Assembly: GCF_902498785.1 (NCBI RefSeq)
Contig: NZ_LR701494.1
Location: forward strand, 1,503,105-1,567,104
DNA: 64,000 bases
Reading direction: 5' to 3'
From: Sphingomonas sp. EC-HK361
GTDB taxonomy: Bacteria; Pseudomonadota; Alphaproteobacteria; Sphingomonadales; Sphingomonadaceae
Shown here: positions 6,455 through 55,143 of the stretch, piece by piece
Numbering within the stretch: position 1 is the first letter of the stretch
How the letters are laid out: every line of letters begins with the position of its first letter
Translations under genes and position numbers: made by a program
Notes under the pieces: generated by a model
Databases searched by the model: none
What the model saw: the letters and a program-made list of their open reading frames with translations, nothing else
What the model was told of the DNA's origin: nothing

Positions 6455-6509
6455 GTATCCCCGCGAAGGCGGGGATCCAGTCTGGGCTCCCGCCTTCGCG
6501 GGAGCACAC
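6455..6509. repeat. REPIN-like doublet, family 1 (copy a)
   Basis: Hairpin 1 ATCCCCGC-gaag-GCGGGGAT, centre CCAGTCTGGG, hairpin 2 CTCCCGC-cttc-GCGGGAG, ending in CACA. It lies between the divergent rplJ and phoX genes, upstream of the Pho box. Confidence 0.85.
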
Positions 6510-31544: not shown

Positions 31545-31599
31545 GTATCCCCGCGCAGGCGGGGATCCAGACTGGGCTCCCGCCTTCGCGGGAGCACAA
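31545..31599. repeat. REPIN-like doublet, family 1 (copy b)
   Basis: Hairpin 1 ATCCCCGC-gcag-GCGGGGAT, centre CCAGACTGGG, hairpin 2 CTCCCGC-cttc-GCGGGAG, end CACAA. It begins 4 bases after the phhA stop and separates it from the convergent prmA. Confidence 0.88.
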
Positions 31600-39010: not shown

Positions 39011-39094
39011 CCGTGCTCCCGCGCAGGCGGGAGCCCAGAGCCAATCAGGATACCGCGCGTTGCTCGGGGCTCCCGCCTGCGCGGGAGCACGGCA
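39011..39094. repeat. REPIN-like doublet, family 1 (copy c, long spacer)
   Basis: Hairpin 1 GCTCCCGC-gcag-GCGGGAGC, a 34-base spacer, hairpin 2 GCTCCCGC-ctgc-GCGGGAGC, outer CCGTG/CACGG. The loop change GAAG to GCAG is matched by CTTC to CTGC in the second hairpin. Lies between sdhA and the ClpP-like gene. Confidence 0.85.
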
Positions 39095-39154
39095 AGTGCA
39101 ACGACTTCGTATGCCGATCCGGAACCCTCCATCCCCATCACCGGTTGCGCGGCC

Positions 39155-39721
39155 ATGACCTCCGATCCCAACCGCTACCCGCTGCTCGCGCAGCCCCACA
39201 TCCGCCTCGTCGGCCCGATCACCGACCAGACCTACGCCACTTGGCGCACCCAGCTTACCGCCTGCCCCCCTGACGGCCCGATCGTCGTCACTCTTACGAC
39301 GCTCGGCGGCGATCCTGAGATTGCGCGGACGATGGCTGACGAAGTGCGCCTGCTGTGCGATTATCACGGCCGCGAGATGCTGTTCCTCGGCAAGGTCGCG
39401 GTGTATTCGGCGGGGGCGACCTTCATGTCCGCCTTCCCGGTCGAGCGCCGCTTTCTCACCCGGCGCACCCGGCTGATGCTCCACGAGCGCCAGATCTCGA
39501 AGAAGATCACCCTCGACGGGCCGCTTCGCATGGTCGTGTCGTCGATCAAGGCGGCCCTCCACGAGATCGAGCATTCGGTGATGATCGAGGAGGAGGGCTT
39601 TCGCGATCTCGTCGCGGGGAGCCGGGTGAGCTTCGAGCAGCTTCGCGAAAGGGCGCCGTCCAACTGGTATATCGAGGCCGAGGAGGCGCGCGATCTCGGG
39701 CTGGTGCTCGACGTCATCTGA
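39155..39721 (+). CDS. ClpP-like serine protease (S14 family-like)
   Basis: 188 residues with a crotonase/ClpP fold: [21 protein letters not shown] (ClpP 'N-S-P-G-G' loop region), nucleophile Ser in [14 protein letters not shown], His in [12 protein letters not shown]. It is shorter and more divergent than housekeeping ClpP, and partner ATPase sites cannot be judged. It lies between sdhA and sdhB, preceded by two repeat elements and followed by 106 bases, which suggests insertion into the sdh operon. Its substrate is unknown. Confidence 0.8.
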
Positions 39722-39827
39722 TCCGCCGCCGGGTGCGGGTAGTGTTTGCGGCCACCCGCCACCTTATGTATCTGGCACGCGAACCGCGCGACACCGCGAC
39801 CGATCCGATCACACGGGACATGTCAGA

Positions 39828-40610
39828 ATGGCCGAATTCTCCCTGCCGAAGAACAGCGTCGTCAAGAAGGGCAAGGCCCACAAGGCGGCGCAGCCGGGCG
39901 GGCGGATGAAGAAATTCAAGATTTACCGCTACGATCCCGATTCCGGCGAAAACCCGCGCTACGACGATTTCGAGATCAATCTCGACGAATGCGGCCCGAT
40001 GGTGCTCGACGCGCTCATCAAGATGAAGGCCGAGCAGGATTCCTCGCTCACCTTCCGCCGCTCGTGCCGCGAGGGCATTTGCGGCTCGTGTTCGATGAAC
40101 ATCGACGGCAAGAACGGCCTCGCCTGCACCACCGCGATCGAGGACGTGAAGGGCGAGGTGAAGATCACGCCGCTCCCCGCAATGGACGTCATCAAGGACC
40201 TCGTTCCCGACTTCACCCATTTCTACGCGCAATATGCCTCGATCAAGCCGTGGCTGCAGACCGTCACCCCGCCGCCCGCCGGCAAGGAGCGCCTCCAGTC
40301 GCCCGACGAACGCGCGAAGCTCGACGGCCTCTACGAATGCATCCTGTGCGCCTGCTGCTCGACCTCGTGCCCGAGCTACTGGTGGAACAGTGACAAGTTC
40401 CTGGGGCCGGCGATCCTGCTGCAAGCCTATCGCTGGCTCGCCGACAGCCGCGACGAGATGACCGGCGAGCGGCTCGACAGCCTCGAGGACCCGTTCCGCC
40501 TCTACCGCTGCCACACCATCATGAACTGTGCCAACGCCTGCCCCAAGGGCCTCAATCCGGCGAAGGCGATCGCCGAGATCAAGAAGATGGAAGCCGAGCG
40601 AGTTCTTTAG
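39828..40610 (+). CDS. sdhB: Succinate dehydrogenase iron-sulfur subunit
   Basis: 260 residues. [2Fe-2S] ligands in [16 protein letters not shown] and LACTT; [4Fe-4S]/[3Fe-4S] ligands in [16 protein letters not shown] and [17 protein letters not shown]. It carries electrons from SdhA to the membrane quinone. The start ATG fits family N-termini. Separated from sdhA by the ClpP-like gene, so its transcription may depend on the ClpP-like segment or on a promoter in the 106-base gap. Confidence 0.97.
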
Positions 40611-40612
40611 GA

Positions 40613-40697
40613 GCACCGTGCTCCCGCGCAGGCGGGAGCCCAGAGCCACGGGGGACGGCGCTTGTGGCTCTGGACCCCCGCCTTCGCGGGGGTACTG
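40613..40697. repeat. REPIN-like doublet, family 1 (copy d)
   Basis: Hairpin 1 GCTCCCGC-gcag-GCGGGAGC, a spacer that itself pairs (CCAGAGCCAC with GTGGCTCTGG), hairpin 2 ACCCCCGC-cttc-GCGGGGGT. It begins 3 bases after the sdhB stop and ends 2 bases before the thioesterase ATG, whose only G-rich ribosome-binding sequence lies inside hairpin 2. Confidence 0.88.
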
Positions 40698-40698
40698 C

Positions 40699-41154
40699 AT
40701 GACCGACCAACCCAGACCCGACTTCCTCTACGAAGAGCACCCTGACCACCCCGGCTGGATGGCCTGGGGCTTCCGCGATCCGACCCGCTACAACGCGTTC
40801 CTCGGCCCGATGCTCGTCCGCCGCGAGGACGGCATCGCCCGCGTCCGCATGACCCCCGGTCGCGAGCACTCCAACCTCGCCGATCGCGTCCACGGCGGCG
40901 CGCTCCTCGGCTTCATCGACGTGGCGCTTTTCGCCGCCAGCCGCAGCTTCGGGCTGATCTCCGCCGGCACCGCGGTGACGCTCGACCTCTCCACCCAGTT
41001 CATCGGCGGCGGTCGCCTCGGCGAGCCGCTGGAAGCACAGGTCGAGCTCCTGAAGGAAACCGGCCGCCTGCTGTTCCTGCGCGGCCTCGTGGTGCAGGGC
41101 GACGACAAGGTCGCGAGCTTCAGCGGCACGATCCGCAAGCCGACGGCGCGATGA
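40699..41154 (+). CDS. PaaI-family hotdog thioesterase
   Basis: 151 residues. Hotdog-fold signature REHSNLADRVHGGALLGFIDVALFAAS (helix with HGG), then VTLDLSTQFIGGGRLGEPLEAQVELLKETGRL. Members hydrolyse acyl- or aryl-CoA thioesters; substrate unknown. Start ATG 40699 immediately follows a REPIN element, and GGGGG at 40687-40692 is the only Shine-Dalgarno candidate. Confidence 0.9.
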   Translation: MTDQPRPDFLYEEHPDHPGWMAWGFRDPTRYNAFLGPMLVRREDGIARVRMTPGREHSNLADRVHGGALLGFIDVALFAASRSFGLISAGTAVTLDLSTQFIGGGRLGEPLEAQVELLKETGRLLFLRGLVVQGDDKVASFSGTIRKPTAR

Positions 41155-41165
41155 AATACGATCCG

Positions 41166-41243
41166 TATTCCCGCGAAGGCGGGAATCCAGAGCCACAAGC
41201 GCTGTCCTTCGACGCACTGGACCCCCGCCTCCGCGGGGGTGCT
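41166..41243. repeat. REPIN-like doublet, family 1 (copy e)
   Basis: Hairpin 1 ATTCCCGC-gaag-GCGGGAAT, spacer CCAGAGCC…CACTGG, hairpin 2 ACCCCCGC-ctcc-GCGGGGGT. It lies between the thioesterase and zapE. The stem-1 pair ATT/AAT replaces ATC/GAT of other copies, keeping pairing. Confidence 0.85.
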
Positions 41244-41254
41244 GGCAGCCGCCC

Positions 41255-43433: not shown

Positions 43434-44572
<1,139 letters not shown>

Positions 44573-44580
44573 GGGGGCTT

Positions 44581-44635
44581 GTATCCCCGCGGAGGCGGGG
44601 ATCCAGACTGGGCTCCCGCCTTCGCGGGAGCACAA
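44581..44635. repeat. REPIN-like doublet, family 1 (copy f, left flank of the nuclease gene)
   Basis: ATCCCCGC-ggag-GCGGGGAT, CCAGACTGGG, CTCCCGC-cttc-GCGGGAG, CACAA. Read as its reverse complement it closely matches copy g at 44950, so the two copies are in inverted orientation around the GIY-YIG gene. It starts 8 bases after the mdh stop. Confidence 0.9.
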
Positions 44636-44644
44636 GGGAGCGCA

Positions 44645-44941
44645 ATGCTGATGAACAAGCCCGGCTTCGCCTACATCATGGCAAGCGGGCGAAACGGCAC
44701 GGTTTACATCGGAGTGACCAGCGATCTCGCCGCGCGGGCGTATCAGCATCGTAACGGCCTGGTCGAGGGTTTCACCAAGAAATACGGCTGCAAATATCTC
44801 GTCTGGTACGAGGCACATGACGATCTGGAAGGCGCGCGATATCGCGAGCTCCAGATGAAGAAATGGAACCGGCAGTGGAAGCTGACGGAGATTGAACGAA
44901 TGAACCCCGGCTGGGACGATCTGTTCGAGTTATTGTTTTGA
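44645..44941 (+). CDS. Single-domain GIY-YIG endonuclease
   Basis: 98 residues, one complete GIY-YIG domain. FAYIMAS (8-14, GIY strand), [16 protein letters not shown] (20-35) with catalytic R31 and H35, the metal-binding E68 in YRELQMKKW, and the family ending NPGWDDLF. Similar small nucleases (UPF0213/YhbQ-like) are common; activity on single-copy targets is poorly known. The gene is bracketed by two inverted REPIN copies inside the mdh-suc operon. ATG 44645 has AGGGAG 5 bases upstream; ATG 44651 is an alternative. It appears intact. Confidence 0.92.
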
Positions 44942-44949
44942 AGCTTCCT

Positions 44950-45005
44950 TGTGCTCCCGCGAAGGCGGGAGCCCAGACTGGGTCCCCGCCTTCGCGGGGA
45001 CACAA
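44950..45005. repeat. REPIN-like doublet, family 1 (copy g, right flank of the nuclease gene)
   Basis: GCTCCCGC-gaag-GCGGGAGC, CCAGACTGG, GTCCCCGC-cttc-GCGGGGAC, with outer TTGT/ACAA. Orientation is opposite to copy f. It starts about 9 bases after the GIY-YIG stop and ends 19 bases before sucD. Confidence 0.9.
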
Positions 45006-45023
45006 GGTAGAGATGGAGACAGA

Positions 45024-45908
45024 ATGAGCATCCTCGTCGACAAGAACACCAGGGTCATCACCCAAGGGATGACCGGCGAAACCGGCAGCTTCCACACGAA
45101 GGCGGCGCTGGACTACGGCACGCAGATGGTCGCCGGCGTCACGCCGGGGAAGGGCGGCACGACCCATCTCGACCTGCCCGTCTACGACACCGTCGCCGAG
45201 GCCGTGGCGAAGACCGGCGCGACCGCGAGCGTGATCTACGTCCCGCCCCCCTTCGCCGCGGATTCGATCCTCGAGGCGATCGATGCCGAGGTGCCGCTGA
45301 TCGTCACCATCACCGAGGGCATTCCCGTGCTCGACATGGTGAAGGTGAAGCGGGCGCTCTCGGGCTCGAAATCGCGCCTCATCGGCCCGAATTGCCCCGG
45401 CGTGCTGACGCCGGGCGAGTGCAAGATCGGCATCATGCCGGGCAGCATCTTCAAACAAGGTTCGGTCGGCGTCGTCAGCCGCTCGGGCACGCTCACCTAT
45501 GAGGCGGTGTTCCAGACGACGAACGCCGGCCTCGGCCAGACGACCGCGGTCGGCATCGGCGGCGATCCGGTCAACGGCACCAACTTCATCGACGTGCTCG
45601 AACTGTTCCTCGCCGACGACGCGACGACCTCGATCATCATGATCGGTGAGATCGGCGGTTCGGCTGAAGAGGAAGCCGCGCAGTTCCTCCGCGACGAGGC
45701 GAAGCGCGGGCGCAAGAAGCCGATGGCGGGCTTCATCGCCGGCCGCACCGCACCTCCGGGCAGGCGGATGGGCCATGCCGGCGCGATCGTCTCAGGTGGC
45801 CAGGGCGGAGCGGAAGACAAGATCGCGGCGATGGAAGCGGCCGGGATCAAGGTGGCGGCGTCGCCCAGCGAGCTGGGGTCGACGCTGCTGGAAGTACTCA
45901 AGGGATAA
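45024..45908 (+). CDS. sucD: Succinyl-CoA synthetase alpha subunit
   Basis: 294 residues. CoA-binding fold with [49 protein letters not shown], and the phosphorylated H251 in [13 protein letters not shown]. With SucC it converts succinyl-CoA to succinate with NTP formation. sucC is absent: mdh, the nuclease gene and then sucD occupy the place where sucC often lies, so the beta subunit must be encoded elsewhere. Confidence 0.97.
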
Positions 45909-45915
45909 CCCTCAT

Positions 45916-45971
45916 TGTACCCCCGCGAAGGCGGGGGTCCAGTCTGGGTCCCCGCCTTCGCGGGGACACAA
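45916..45971. repeat. REPIN-like doublet, family 1 (copy h)
   Basis: ACCCCCGC-gaag-GCGGGGGT, CCAGTCTGG, GTCCCCGC-cttc-GCGGGGAC, outer TTGT/ACAA. Lies 7 bases after the sucD stop and 12 before sucA. Stem 1 carries C-G where other copies have T-A. Confidence 0.9.
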
Positions 45972-45983
45972 AGGACCCGGGAC

Positions 45984-48917
45984 ATGGGCTACGAAGGTCA
46001 GGATTTCAGCGACATCGCCGCCGGCGTCAGCCCGGCGTTCGTCGAGGCGCTGTATGCGCGGTTCAAGGCGTCGCCCGACACGGTCGAGCCCGGCTGGCGC
46101 GGCTTTTTCGAGGGGCTGGAAGGCTCCGCGCAGGGGCCGAGCTGGGCCAACATCGCCTGGCCGCTCAAGACGACGGACGATCTGACCGCCGCGCTCGACC
46201 CCACCCAGATGGAGCCCGCGCCCAGGCCCGCAAAGCCCGGCGCCAAGCCTGCAGCGCCCGCCGCCGACGCTGCTCCCAAGGTCGACGTCACCAAGGCCGC
46301 GGCCGACGCCATCCGCGTCCAGATGCTCATCCGCACCTACCGCGTGCGCGGGCACCTCGCCGCCAATCTCGATCCCCTCGGCATGGCGCGGCAGGAGCTT
46401 CCGGCCGATCTCAGCCCCGCCTATCACGGTTTCTCGGACGCCGATCTCGATCGCCCGGTCTATCTCGGCGGCACCCTCGGCCTGCAATGGTCGAGCGTTC
46501 GCGAGGTCGTCGCGATCCTCCAGCGCAACTATTGCGGCTCGGTCGGCCTCGAATACATGCACATCGCTGATGTCGAGGAACGCGTGTTCCTCCAGGACCG
46601 CATGGAGGGCAAGGACAAGGCGATCGAGTTCACGCCAGAGGGCAAGAAGGCGATCCTCACCAAGGTGATCGAAGGCGAGCAGTGGGAGAAATTCCTCGGC
46701 CGCAAATATGTCGGCACCAAGCGCTTCGGCCTCGACGGCGGCGAAAGCATGATCCCCGCGCTCGAAAGCGTCATCAAATATGGCGGCGCGATGGGGGTGA
46801 ACGAGATTGTGTTCGGCATGGCCCACCGCGGCCGGCTGAACGTCCTCGCCAACGTCATGGCGAAGCCGCTGCGGGTGATCTTCCATGAATTCGCCGGCGG
46901 CTCCGCTAACCCCGACGACATCGGCGGATCGGGCGACGTGAAATACCATCTCGGGACCAGCACCGACCGTCAGTTCGACGGGATCAAGGTCCATATGTCG
47001 CTCGTCGCCAACCCGAGCCACCTCGAGGCGGCGGACCCCGTCGTCCTCGGCAAGACGCGCGCGATCCAGACGATCGCGGACGATCTGGAGCATCACTGCA
47101 AGTCGCTTCCCGTCCTCATCCACGGCGACGCGGCGTTCGCGGGACAGGGGATCGTGTGGGAATGCCTCGGCTTCTCCGGGGTGCGCGGCTACAACACCGG
47201 CGGCTGCATCCACTTCGTCATCAACAACCAGATCGGGTTCACGACGAGCCCGCAGTTCGCGCGCTCCTCGCCTTATCCGAGCGACGTGGCGAAGGGCGTC
47301 CAGGCGCCGATCTTCCACGTCAACGGCGACGATCCCGAGGCGGTGACCTTCGCCTGTAAGATGGCGATCGAGTTCCGCCAGAAATTCCACCGCGACATCG
47401 TCATCGACATGTGGTGCTACCGCCGCTTCGGCCATAACGAGGGCGACGAGCCGAGCTTCACCCAGCCGCTGATGTACGATCGTATCCGCCAGCACCCGCC
47501 GGTGAGCAGCATCTACGCAAAGCGATTGGTCGAGGAAAAGGTCGTCGACCAGGCCTGGGTGGACGAGAACGTCAAGCAGTTCACTACGCTGCTGGAGGGC
47601 GAGTTCGAGGCGGGCGCCGCGTACAAACCCAACAAGGCCGACTGGTTCGGCGGGCGGTGGTCCGGCCTCGGCGCCCCCGCCGACCCCGAAACCGCGCGCC
47701 GCAATATCGAAACCGGCGTCGAGAAGAAGCTGTTCGATGCGCTCGGCCGCACGCTGACGACCGTTCCCGAAGACCTTGCGATCCACAAGACGCTTGGCCG
47801 CGTCCTTGATGCCAAGCGGGCGATGTTCACCAGCGGCGCCAATTTCGACTGGGCGACCGGCGAAGCGCTGGCCTTCGGCTCGCTGCTCTCCGAAGGCTAC
47901 GGCGTCCGCCTGTCGGGGCAGGATTCGGGCCGCGGCACCTTCTCGCAGCGCCACGCCGTCTGGGTCGATCAGACCGACGAGCACAAGTTCGTCCCGCTTT
48001 CGACCGTCGAGCACGGCCGTTTCGAGGTGCTGGACAGCACGCTCAGCGAATATGGCGTGCTCGGCTTCGAATATGGCTATGCGCTCGCCGACCCCAAGAC
48101 GCTGGTATTGTGGGAAGCGCAGTTCGGCGATTTCGCCAACGGCGCGCAGATCATGATCGATCAGTTCATCGCGAGCGGCGAAGCCAAGTGGCTGCGCGCC
48201 AACGGCCTCGTCATGCTGCTGCCCCACGGCTATGAAGGGCAGGGGCCGGAGCATAGCTCGGCGCGCCCCGAGCGCTTCCTGCAACTGTGCGCGGGCGACA
48301 ACATGCAGGTCGCTAACTGCACCACCCCGGCCAATTATTTCCACCTGCTGCGCCGGCAGATGCACCGCACCTTCCGCAAGCCGCTGGTCATCATGACGCC
48401 GAAGTCGCTGCTGCGTCACAAGCTCGCGGTCAGCCAGGCGAGCGACTTCATCGGCGATACGCACTTCAAACGCATCCTCTCCGACACCAACGGCGCGGCG
48501 GACACCGAGACGAAGCGCGTCGTGCTGTGCACCGGCAAGGTCGCCTACGACCTGATCGAGGCACGCGACGCGGCGGGTGATGCGAACACCCAGATCATCC
48601 GCATCGAGCAGCTCTATCCTTTCCCGGGCGAGCCGCTCGCCGCGCGCCTGAAGAAGATGCCCAACCTCGAAGAGGTCGTGTGGGCGCAGGAAGAGCCGAA
48701 GAACAACGGCTACTGGTTCTTCGTCGAACCCTTTATCGAGGCGTGCCTGGCGGACGCCGGCAGCAAGGTGGCCCGCGCCCGCTATGCCGGCCGCACCCCC
48801 TCGGCCTCGCCCGCGACGGGGCTGATGAAGCGCCATCAGGCCGAACAGGGCGCGCTGGTCGCCGACGCGCTCGGCCACAATGTCCGCGAGGAAATCCGGC
48901 GCACGCGCAAGACTTGA
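45984..48917 (+). CDS. sucA: 2-oxoglutarate dehydrogenase E1 component
   Basis: 977 residues. N-terminal segment with [15 protein letters not shown], thiamine-diphosphate domain [32 protein letters not shown] and [19 protein letters not shown], and the C-terminal transketolase-like domain with [13 protein letters not shown] and [23 protein letters not shown]. It decarboxylates 2-oxoglutarate and passes succinyl to the lipoyl group of SucB. A REPIN copy lies in each gap on either side. Confidence 0.98.
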
Positions 48918-48925
48918 TCCTATCT

Positions 48926-48981
48926 TGTATCCCCGCGAAGGCGGGGATCCAGCCTGGGCTCCCGCCTTCGCGGGAGCACAT
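48926..48981. repeat. REPIN-like doublet, family 1 (copy i)
   Basis: ATCCCCGC-gaag-GCGGGGAT, CCAGCCTGGG, CTCCCGC-cttc-GCGGGAG, CACA. Between sucA and sucB, 8 bases after the sucA stop. Confidence 0.9.
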
Positions 48982-50241: not shown

Positions 50242-50296
50242 TGTATCCCCGCGAAGGCGGGGATCCAGACTGGGCTCCCGCCTTCGCGGGAGCACA
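50242..50296. repeat. REPIN-like doublet, family 1 (copy j)
   Basis: ATCCCCGC-gaag-GCGGGGAT, CCAGACTGGG, CTCCCGC-cttc-GCGGGAG, CACA. Between sucB and lpd, 5 bases after the sucB stop. Nearly identical to copies f and i. Confidence 0.9.
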
Positions 50297-55050: not shown

Positions 55051-55143
55051 CCGTCATTCCCGCGAAGGCGGGAATCCAGACGGGCTGGCTGTGGTCAAGT
55101 CTCACCTCCACCAGCGGCTATGGATTCCCGCACTTGCGATTAT
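55051..55143. repeat. REPIN-like doublet, family 1 (decayed copy k)
   Basis: Intact left hairpin ATTCCCGC-gaag-GCGGGAAT; the right half (GGATTCCCGCACTTGCG) has lost most pairing. It lies between the barrel gene and the small secreted protein gene. Confidence 0.7.

What the first reader, a model, noticed from the sequence alone, without database searches (positions are those of the whole stretch)
44581..45005. GIY-YIG nuclease gene bracketed by inverted REPIN copies inside the TCA operon
The 98-residue nuclease gene lies between two family-1 elements whose orientations are opposite: copy g (44950) is close to the reverse complement of copy f (44581). Removing the gene and one copy would leave mdh-REPIN-sucD, the same form as every other gap of the operon. 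REP doublets in other bacteria are mobilised by RAYT transposases; none is visible here. A nuclease-linked repeat system, in which the GIY-YIG protein nicks or copies the palindromes, would be a different mechanism. What is seen: the inverted flanks, the intact active site, and the many copies nearby. The mobilisation role is inference.
Basis: partly seen in the sequence, partly recalled or inferred. Interest (0 to 1): 0.85.

Follow-up and report, generated by a model that had tools for sequence, protein, structure and literature searches.

The report
Nuclease gene paired with palindromic repeats
A small DNA-cutting enzyme gene, found from Sphingomonas to Patescibacteria, often sits between two copies of a short palindromic repeat that is scattered through its host genome, which makes it a strong candidate for the missing enzyme behind a large, so far orphan, class of bacterial repeats.

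Summary
The window has a 98-aa GIY-YIG nuclease gene (44645-44941) between two REPINs whose inner halves form a perfect 30-bp inverted repeat. Of 80 homologous loci fetched by protein similarity alone, 42 of 78 testable genes have a REP hairpin within 200 nt on both sides, against 7 of 485 other ORFs; outside Sphingomonadales 28 of 52 against 3 of 306. In 90 genomes of one genus sample, those with an intact nuclease at mdh-sucD carry a median of 70 REPs, the others 5 (p=3e-10). At that site nuclease and REP types change together (Mantel r 0.54-0.61) while sucD does not track REP type. Y1 transposases (RAYT type) are in 12 of 121 genomes, with no REP in their 20 loci. Di Nocera 2013 split REPs into GTAG (with RAYT) and CGTC ('apparently lack a dedicated transposase'); these are CGTC-type or close variants. 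Best reading: this nuclease is the cognate enzyme of CGTC-type REPs, the gene with its REPs being the driver form and REPINs the gene-less form. Cleavage and movement are inferred, not shown.

The parts
44645..44941 (+). GIY-YIG nuclease gene, 98 aa; Y10, Y21, G23, R31, H35, E68, N87 invariant in 27 aligned homologs
   Evidence: AlphaFold2 model mean pLDDT 95
44579..44635 (+). REPIN f (REP plus inverted REP)
44949..45005 (-). REPIN g, close to the reverse complement of f
44608..44637 (+). left arm of the perfect 30-bp inverted repeat around the gene
44947..44976 (-). right arm of the perfect 30-bp inverted repeat
45915..45971 (+). REPIN in the sucD-odhA gap
48925..48981 (+). REPIN in the odhA-odhB gap
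50242..50296 (+). REPIN in the odhB-lpd gap
6460..6502 (+). REPIN (cores only), short-spacer type
31550..31592 (+). REPIN (cores only), short-spacer type
39011..39094 (+). REPIN with a longer spacer (84-nt type)
40616..40699 (+). REPIN with a longer spacer (84-nt type)
41163..41246 (+). REPIN with a longer spacer (84-nt type)
55059..55079 (+). single REP core; with the bases before it it reads CGTCATTCCCGCGAAGGCGGGAATCCAG, the canonical CGTC form
43610..44572 (+). mdh, malate dehydrogenase (host gene upstream)
45024..45908 (+). sucD, succinate-CoA ligase alpha subunit (host gene downstream)

Best explanation
The GIY-YIG protein is the dedicated (cognate) nuclease of CGTC-type REP hairpins. A REP - nuclease gene - inverted REP unit of about 350-450 bp is the driver form. 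REPINs (REP plus inverted REP with no gene) are its gene-less form, amplified in trans, in the way RAYT is thought to serve GTAG REPs but with an unrelated enzyme. Shown here: the linkage across phyla, the inverted architecture, the co-variation of nuclease and REP type at one orthologous site, the correlation with genome-wide REP number, the lack of correlation with Y1 transposases, and purifying selection on the nuclease. Inferred: the protein cuts the hairpin (extruded cruciform, or hairpin on single-stranded template) near the foot of the stem, and repair or replication from another copy then spreads REPINs and, more rarely, the gene-bearing unit. In the window the gene is an intact copy at a site, mdh-sucD, that is long occupied in the genus.
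For: 80 loci from a protein-only scan: REP on both sides in 42 of 78, against 7 of 485 control ORFs of the same loci. Outside Sphingomonadales 28 of 52 against 3 of 306, p 4e-24; REP density 4.40 per kb within 200 nt of the gene against 0.184 elsewhere. The commonest layout is REP+ gene REP-, tag outside and CCA tail toward the gene (24 of 78). In G279 the only two pattern matches in 3.2 Mb lie 447 nt apart in opposite orientation, and L033 from that genome shows REPs flanking the nuclease; in G302 all five in 5.8 Mb lie within 580 bp, and L077 from that genome has REPs on both sides of the nuclease. Orthologous mdh-sucD site, 46 intact genes including the window: REP core found upstream in 44, downstream in 39, both in 37; nuclease-REP Mantel r 0.54 (n 44) and 0.61 (n 39), p 0.0002, partial given sucD 0.56 and 0.65; sucD-REP r -0.04 and -0.05. 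Perfect inverted match of 20 nt or more between the flanks in 23 of 46, direct in 0. Genome-wide REPs (two stem patterns summed): median 70 with an intact site (n 45) against 5 without (n 45), p 3e-10; nuclease anywhere 32 (n 107) against 0.5 (n 14), p 0.0003. Family sample: 2 or more REPs in 78 of 97 nuclease-positive against 14 of 52 negative genomes, p 1.9e-10; Y1_Tnp 19 of 26 against 73 of 123, p 0.27. Genome-wide share of the CCCGC-stem REP: 0.76 where the site carries that class (n 9) against 0.33 (n 35), p 0.0017. Median dN/dS 0.22 over the 445 pairs with dS 0.05-1.2, none at 1 or above. In Neisseria gonorrhoeae the homolog lies among 16 CGTC-form hairpins within 3.3 kb, and Di Nocera 2013 equates Neisseria CGTC-1 with dRS3. 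Fold neighbours include Slx1, in entries titled as processing branched DNA.
Against: No cleavage, binding or movement was observed. No clean recent insertion with a nucleotide-level empty site was found, and target-site duplications were not searched for; in G143 four copies 87-93% alike lie inside longer repeats. Co-variation at one site can come from physical linkage alone. Exceptions: REP-rich genomes without a nuclease hit (G056, G070, G139; G213 with 103 REPs) and 19 nuclease-positive genomes with 0-1 match to the REP pattern. 13 of 78 loci have no strict REP on either side; Rhizobium K1/93 has none upstream and the nearest 184 nt downstream. Genome-wide REP type is mixed: 2 of 9 genomes with the CCCGC class at the site have more of the other type, and 10 of 35 with the CCGGC class have more CCCGC type. 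Genome correlations are not corrected for phylogeny.
Confidence: 0.62

Rival explanations
1. Homing reading: the nuclease gene is a homing-type gene that cuts REPINs and copies itself into the cut by recombination between REP arms. REPINs arose by some other route and are its target, not its product.
For: The commonest layout, REP+ gene REP-, is what a REPIN split in its middle would give. GIY-YIG homing endonucleases are known (titles). The gene occupies three different gaps of the same operon in different genomes (mdh-sucD, sucD-odhA, odhB-lpd), gaps that hold REPINs in the window. In G249 the REPs flanking the gene have the same core as its gene-less REPINs.
Against: It does not explain why genomes that keep the nuclease hold so many more REPs, unless cutting also spreads REPINs. 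The window and some relatives carry whole REPINs on a side, not half-REPINs.
Confidence: 0.2
2. Passenger reading: the nuclease has a host or repair role, and the REPs beside it are hitch-hikers or RNA-stabilising hairpins that travel with it by linkage.
For: Small COG2827 genes of Caulobacter were proposed to act in repair and one has an SOS box (PMC1839093, passages; that the window's gene is COG2827 is my recall). Linkage alone could give the Mantel result. The nuclease is under purifying selection.
Against: REPs on both sides of other ORFs of the same loci are rare (7 of 485). In two genomes all REP matches sit around this gene. Genome-wide REP number follows nuclease presence.
Confidence: 0.13
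3. RAYT or another IS200/IS605 transposase moves these REPs in trans; the nuclease is incidental.
For: GTAG REPs are hypothesised to be mobilised by RAYTs (PMC3733652 abstract and passages).
Against: Y1_Tnp is in 26 of 149 and 12 of 121 genomes and unrelated to REP count in the family sample; the 12 positive genus genomes have median 4.5 REPs, maximum 81, and no strict REP lies in any of the 20 Y1_Tnp loci. Di Nocera 2013 found no RAYT flanked by CGTC repeats.
Confidence: 0.04

Closest known systems
REPIN-RAYT systems (GTAG REPs with REP-associated tyrosine transposase, REPtrons)
   Same: A short hairpin repeat in high copy, inverted dimers, and a nuclease gene flanked by the repeat.
   Different: GIY-YIG fold instead of HUH/Y1; CGTC-type or variant hairpins with CCA tail instead of GTAG; no REP in the Y1_Tnp loci examined.
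CGTC-tagged REP superfamily (Di Nocera 2013; includes Neisseria dRS3 and Rickettsia RPE-4/RPE-6)
   Same: 8-9 bp stem, 4-5 nt loop, CCA tail, mainly inverted dimers, several phyla (definition).
   Different: That paper says they apparently lack a dedicated transposase and does not contain the term GIY-YIG. The window's f and g carry TTGT-type tags; the single REP at 55059 has a canonical CGTC tag.
GIY-YIG homing endonucleases (I-TevI type; details recalled)
   Same: Catalytic fold and motif; the gene can be mobile.
   Different: 98 aa, catalytic domain only; in the window it lies in an intergenic gap of an operon and is flanked by palindromic repeats.
UPF0213 / Slx1 / UvrC N-terminal GIY-YIG domains
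   Same: Closest solved folds.
   Different: 16-24% identity in the structural matches; I know of no REP link for them (recall, not searched).
MITEs with TIR-flanked parent insertion sequences
   Same: Gene-less short form and gene-bearing long form that share terminal inverted repeats.
   Different: The terminal repeat is itself a hairpin; no DDE-type transposase is in the unit; target-site duplication not tested.

Membership tests
GIY-YIG nuclease superfamily (PF01541) | Profile match above the curated cut-off and conserved catalytic residues | tested here: met
   47.6 bits against cut-off 22.6; Y10, Y21, G23, R31, E68, N87 invariant in 27 sequences (which of them are catalytic is recalled); model matches UPF0213, Slx1, UvrC
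CGTC REP superfamily | Stem of 8-9 bp, loop 4-5 nt, CCA tail, inverted dimers | tested here: met
   Window f and g: 8-bp stem, 4-nt loop, CCAG tail, inverted dimers (definition)
CGTC REP superfamily | Terminal CGTC (or TGTC/CCTC) tag | tested here: inconclusive
   Many flanking REPs outside Sphingomonadales have CGTC or TGTC; the window's f and g have TTGT; the single REP at 55059 has CGTC
REPIN-RAYT system | HUH/Y1 transposase (PF01797) flanked by the REP | tested here: not met
   The nuclease is GIY-YIG; 0 of 20 Y1_Tnp loci of the genus sample hold a strict REP
REPIN-RAYT system | Nuclease gene flanked by REPs, and REP number linked to the gene | tested here: met
   (for the GIY-YIG gene)
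REPIN-RAYT system | Enzyme cleaves its REP | not testable with these tools
   needs biochemistry
Insertion sequence with TIRs | Terminal inverted repeats around the gene | tested here: met
   Perfect inverted match of 20 nt or more in 23 of 46 intact site copies
Insertion sequence with TIRs | Target-site duplication and exact empty site | not tested
   No search for target-site duplication was made; gaps with REPIN only exist but not between near-identical genomes
GIY-YIG homing endonuclease | Cuts the unoccupied target and copies itself into it | not testable with these tools
   the layout is compatible

The most novel reading that the evidence does not exclude
A distinct class of minimal bacterial mobile element, found in many phyla: two REP hairpins around one GIY-YIG nuclease gene, about 350-450 bp, with CGTC REPs, REPINs, dRS3 and Rickettsia RPEs as its gene-less derivatives, propagated by structure-specific nicking and not by any known transposase chemistry.
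Probability: 0.45. Interest if true: 0.93.

Novelty: new variant of a known kind. Interest (0 to 1): 0.86.

Why it matters
REPs are among the commonest bacterial repeats. One of the two superfamilies defined in 2013 was said to lack a dedicated transposase (PMC3733652), and I found no later paper that supplies one (ten searches, listed under Tried and rejected). This points to a specific, small protein that can be tested in one biochemical assay. It would also give a candidate enzyme for the Neisseria dRS3 elements and, if the nuclease is found there, the Rickettsia palindromic elements, and a second, chemically unrelated solution to the same lifestyle as RAYT-REPIN.

Tried and rejected
Cross-phylum tree of the nuclease: 96 columns are too few to argue transfer; 51 of 77 inner branches open. 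G143 multi-copy test: copies 87-93% alike but embedded in longer repeats, so element ends could not be read. Family-level operon comparison (80 regions): useful for gap states, but odhA was queried there in a wrong frame (17 stops), as, so gap lengths next to odhA are rough. REPIN spacers against gene-adjacent sequence in G249: no firm match by eye, so derivation of REPINs from the gene-bearing unit by deletion is not claimed as shown. Two decayed remnants between REPs, read by eye (L171, L263), suggest loss by internal deletion. Rhizobium plasmid flanks for an empty site: of 32 records, 24 were only 60-80% alike over the upstream stretch, and the 8 close ones are the same eight records that carry the nuclease, so no empty site. 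A genus search around G082 held only 2 genomes. Literature: ten searches listed no paper that links GIY-YIG nucleases with REPs; listings were capped, the library holds no preprints and few subscription papers, so prior description elsewhere cannot be excluded. Papers: PMC3733652 parts 1-2 of 8 and passages; PMC12306157, PMC6006769, PMC1839093 and PMC8049555 passages; the others listing only.

Full report
OBSERVATION. The window carries a 98-aa GIY-YIG gene at 44645-44941 between mdh and sucD. REPIN f (44579-44635) and REPIN g (44949-45005) flank it. Their inner halves form a perfect 30-bp inverted repeat (44608-44637 and 44947-44976), while the longest direct match is 14 nt. The window has 21 REP cores (at most 1 mismatch) against 0 in 100 shuffles.

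IS THE LINK GENERAL? A scan of genome contigs (one genome for each of 84,980 species) with the protein alone gave 463 relatives among 487 candidate stretches, of which the best 80 were kept. A strict hairpin rule was used: perfect stem of 7 or more, loop 3-6, CCA within 1 nt, within 200 nt of the gene. It found REPs on both sides of 42 of 78 genes (2 of 80 skipped for short flank), on at least one side of 65, on neither side of 13. The same rule on 485 other ORFs of at least 100 aa in the same loci gave 7 with both sides. Split by my reading of the record titles: Sphingomonadales 14 of 26 against 4 of 179; others 28 of 52 against 3 of 306. The others with both sides include bins titled Nitrospirae, Omnitrophota, Patescibacteria, Chloroflexota and Deltaproteobacteria, and the cyanobacterium Leptolyngbya. 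In 15 loci all strict REPs of the fetched stretch are those next to the gene.

WHOLE GENOMES. In 30 diverse nuclease-bearing genomes that I chose, a REP pattern occurs in 29. G279 has exactly two matches in 3.2 Mb, 447 nt apart and in opposite orientation; the place of the nuclease in L033, turned to contig coordinates, lies between them. G302 (Leptolyngbya PCC 6406) has five, all within 580 bp, and the nuclease of L077 lies among them. In a family sample of 149 genomes the nuclease is in 97, the REP pattern in 101, Y1_Tnp in 26; the reversed control pattern gave 1 hit in all. REPs of 2 or more: 78 of 97 against 14 of 52, p 1.9e-10; for Y1_Tnp 19 of 26 against 73 of 123, p 0.27. Exceptions are G056, G070, G139 (110, 98 and 120 REPs, no nuclease hit) and 19 genomes with nuclease but 0-1 REP of this pattern. 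In a genus sample of 121 genomes the nuclease is in 107; median REP count 32 against 0.5, with G213 (103 REPs, no hit) the main exception. REP counts in the genus are the sum of two stem patterns; other stems were not counted.

ONE SITE, MANY VERSIONS. The mdh-sucD gap was read in 90 of the 121 genus genomes, nearly all of them the closest by mdh, plus the window: 46 intact nuclease genes (45 of 90 plus the window), 2 broken, 24 short gaps without it (10 without hairpin, 12 with one, 2 with two), 19 longer gaps with other content. In the 45 relatives with an intact gene the host proteins stay similar to the window's (mdh, in part only fetched, 80-96%; sucD 90-96%) while the nuclease is 53-81% identical to the window's. 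REP type follows the nuclease and not sucD: Mantel r 0.54 upstream (n 44, 2 rows without a REP core dropped) and 0.61 downstream (n 39, 7 dropped), p 0.0002; partial given sucD 0.56 and 0.65; sucD against REP -0.04 and -0.05. Stem base C occurs in 10 copies with nuclease 62-100% identical to the window's; stem base G in 36 copies at 53-70%. L320 has one type on each side. Genomes with an intact gene at this site have median 70 REPs against 5 (p 3e-10). Their genome-wide REP type leans to that of the site class (0.76 against 0.33 CCCGC type, p 0.0017), but 2 of 9 and 10 of 35 genomes lean the other way. Purifying selection: median dN/dS 0.22 over the 445 pairs with dS between 0.05 and 1.2. Decayed copies between two REPs were seen by eye in L171 and L263. 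REPIN-only gaps were seen in L160, L161, L207. In other genomes of the family sample the nuclease sits in the sucD-odhA or odhB-lpd gap of the same operon, and L183 has two.

RAYT. In the genus sample Y1_Tnp is in 12 of 121 genomes (11 over the curated cut-off); their median REP count is 4.5, maximum 81; no strict REP lies in any of the 20 fetched Y1_Tnp loci of about 2-3.4 kb. The window's own genome was not available.

NAMED EXAMPLES. Neisseria gonorrhoeae NZ_CP119140.1 (a chromosome-sized record in the plasmid collection): a 59% homolog lies among 16 CGTC-form hairpins within 3.3 kb, one starting 2 nt after the stop codon; Di Nocera 2013 equates Neisseria CGTC-1 with dRS3. Rhizobium CIAT894: 5-nt-loop CGTC hairpins in inverted orientation on both sides. 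Rhizobium K1/93: none upstream and the nearest 184 nt downstream, a weak case. Caulobacter has three COG2827 genes, one UvrC-like gene with an SOS box, and is on the CGTC list.

PROTEIN. 27 homologs share the invariant residues Y10, Y21, G23, R31, H35, E68, N87 and others; I take Y, Y, R, E, N as the catalytic set from memory. AlphaFold2 model mean pLDDT 95; nearest solved folds are UPF0213, Slx1 and UvrC. Slx1 processes branched DNA (entry title), which fits a hairpin or cruciform substrate (inference).

MECHANISM. Shown: linkage, inverted layout, co-variation, correlation with genome REP load, no correlation with Y1 transposases, selection on the gene. Inferred: hairpin recognition and nicking, REPIN spread in trans, rare spread of the gene-bearing unit. 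Linkage could by itself give the site co-variation, so the genome-wide results carry more weight for recognition; they are not phylogeny-corrected.

KNOWN OR NEW. Di Nocera 2013 defined the CGTC superfamily, stated it apparently lacks a dedicated transposase, and found no RAYT flanked by it. No paper listed in ten searches links GIY-YIG to REPs; preprints were not searchable. The kind of system (repeat plus dedicated nuclease) is known from RAYT; the enzyme and the repeat class are different, hence 'new variant of a known kind'.

Noticed in passing
window 55055-55080: A single REP with canonical CGTC tag, unlike the TTGT-tagged f and g copies.
   Followed up: no
window 39011-41246: Three REPINs with a longer spacer (84-nt type) cluster here, next to the 57-nt type in the TCA operon: two REPIN sizes coexist.
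   Followed up: no
window 44579-44941, 44949-45908, 45915-48917: Open frames run back through the REPINs from the nuclease, sucD and odhA starts (TTG starts), so automatic annotation could add REP-encoded N-termini (such as ...PAFAGTQG...).
   Followed up: no
L183 (G127): Two different nuclease genes in two gaps of the same TCA operon (sucD-odhA 62%, odhB-lpd 67% identical to the window's).
   Followed up: partly
L216-L219 (G143): Four nuclease copies 87-93% alike, three of them with a stop codon, each inside a longer dispersed repeat.
   Followed up: partly
window 43610-45908: sucC is not next to sucD here; the nuclease lies between mdh and sucD. Some relatives have mdh-sucD gaps of about 1.1 kb whose content I did not identify.
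   Followed up: no
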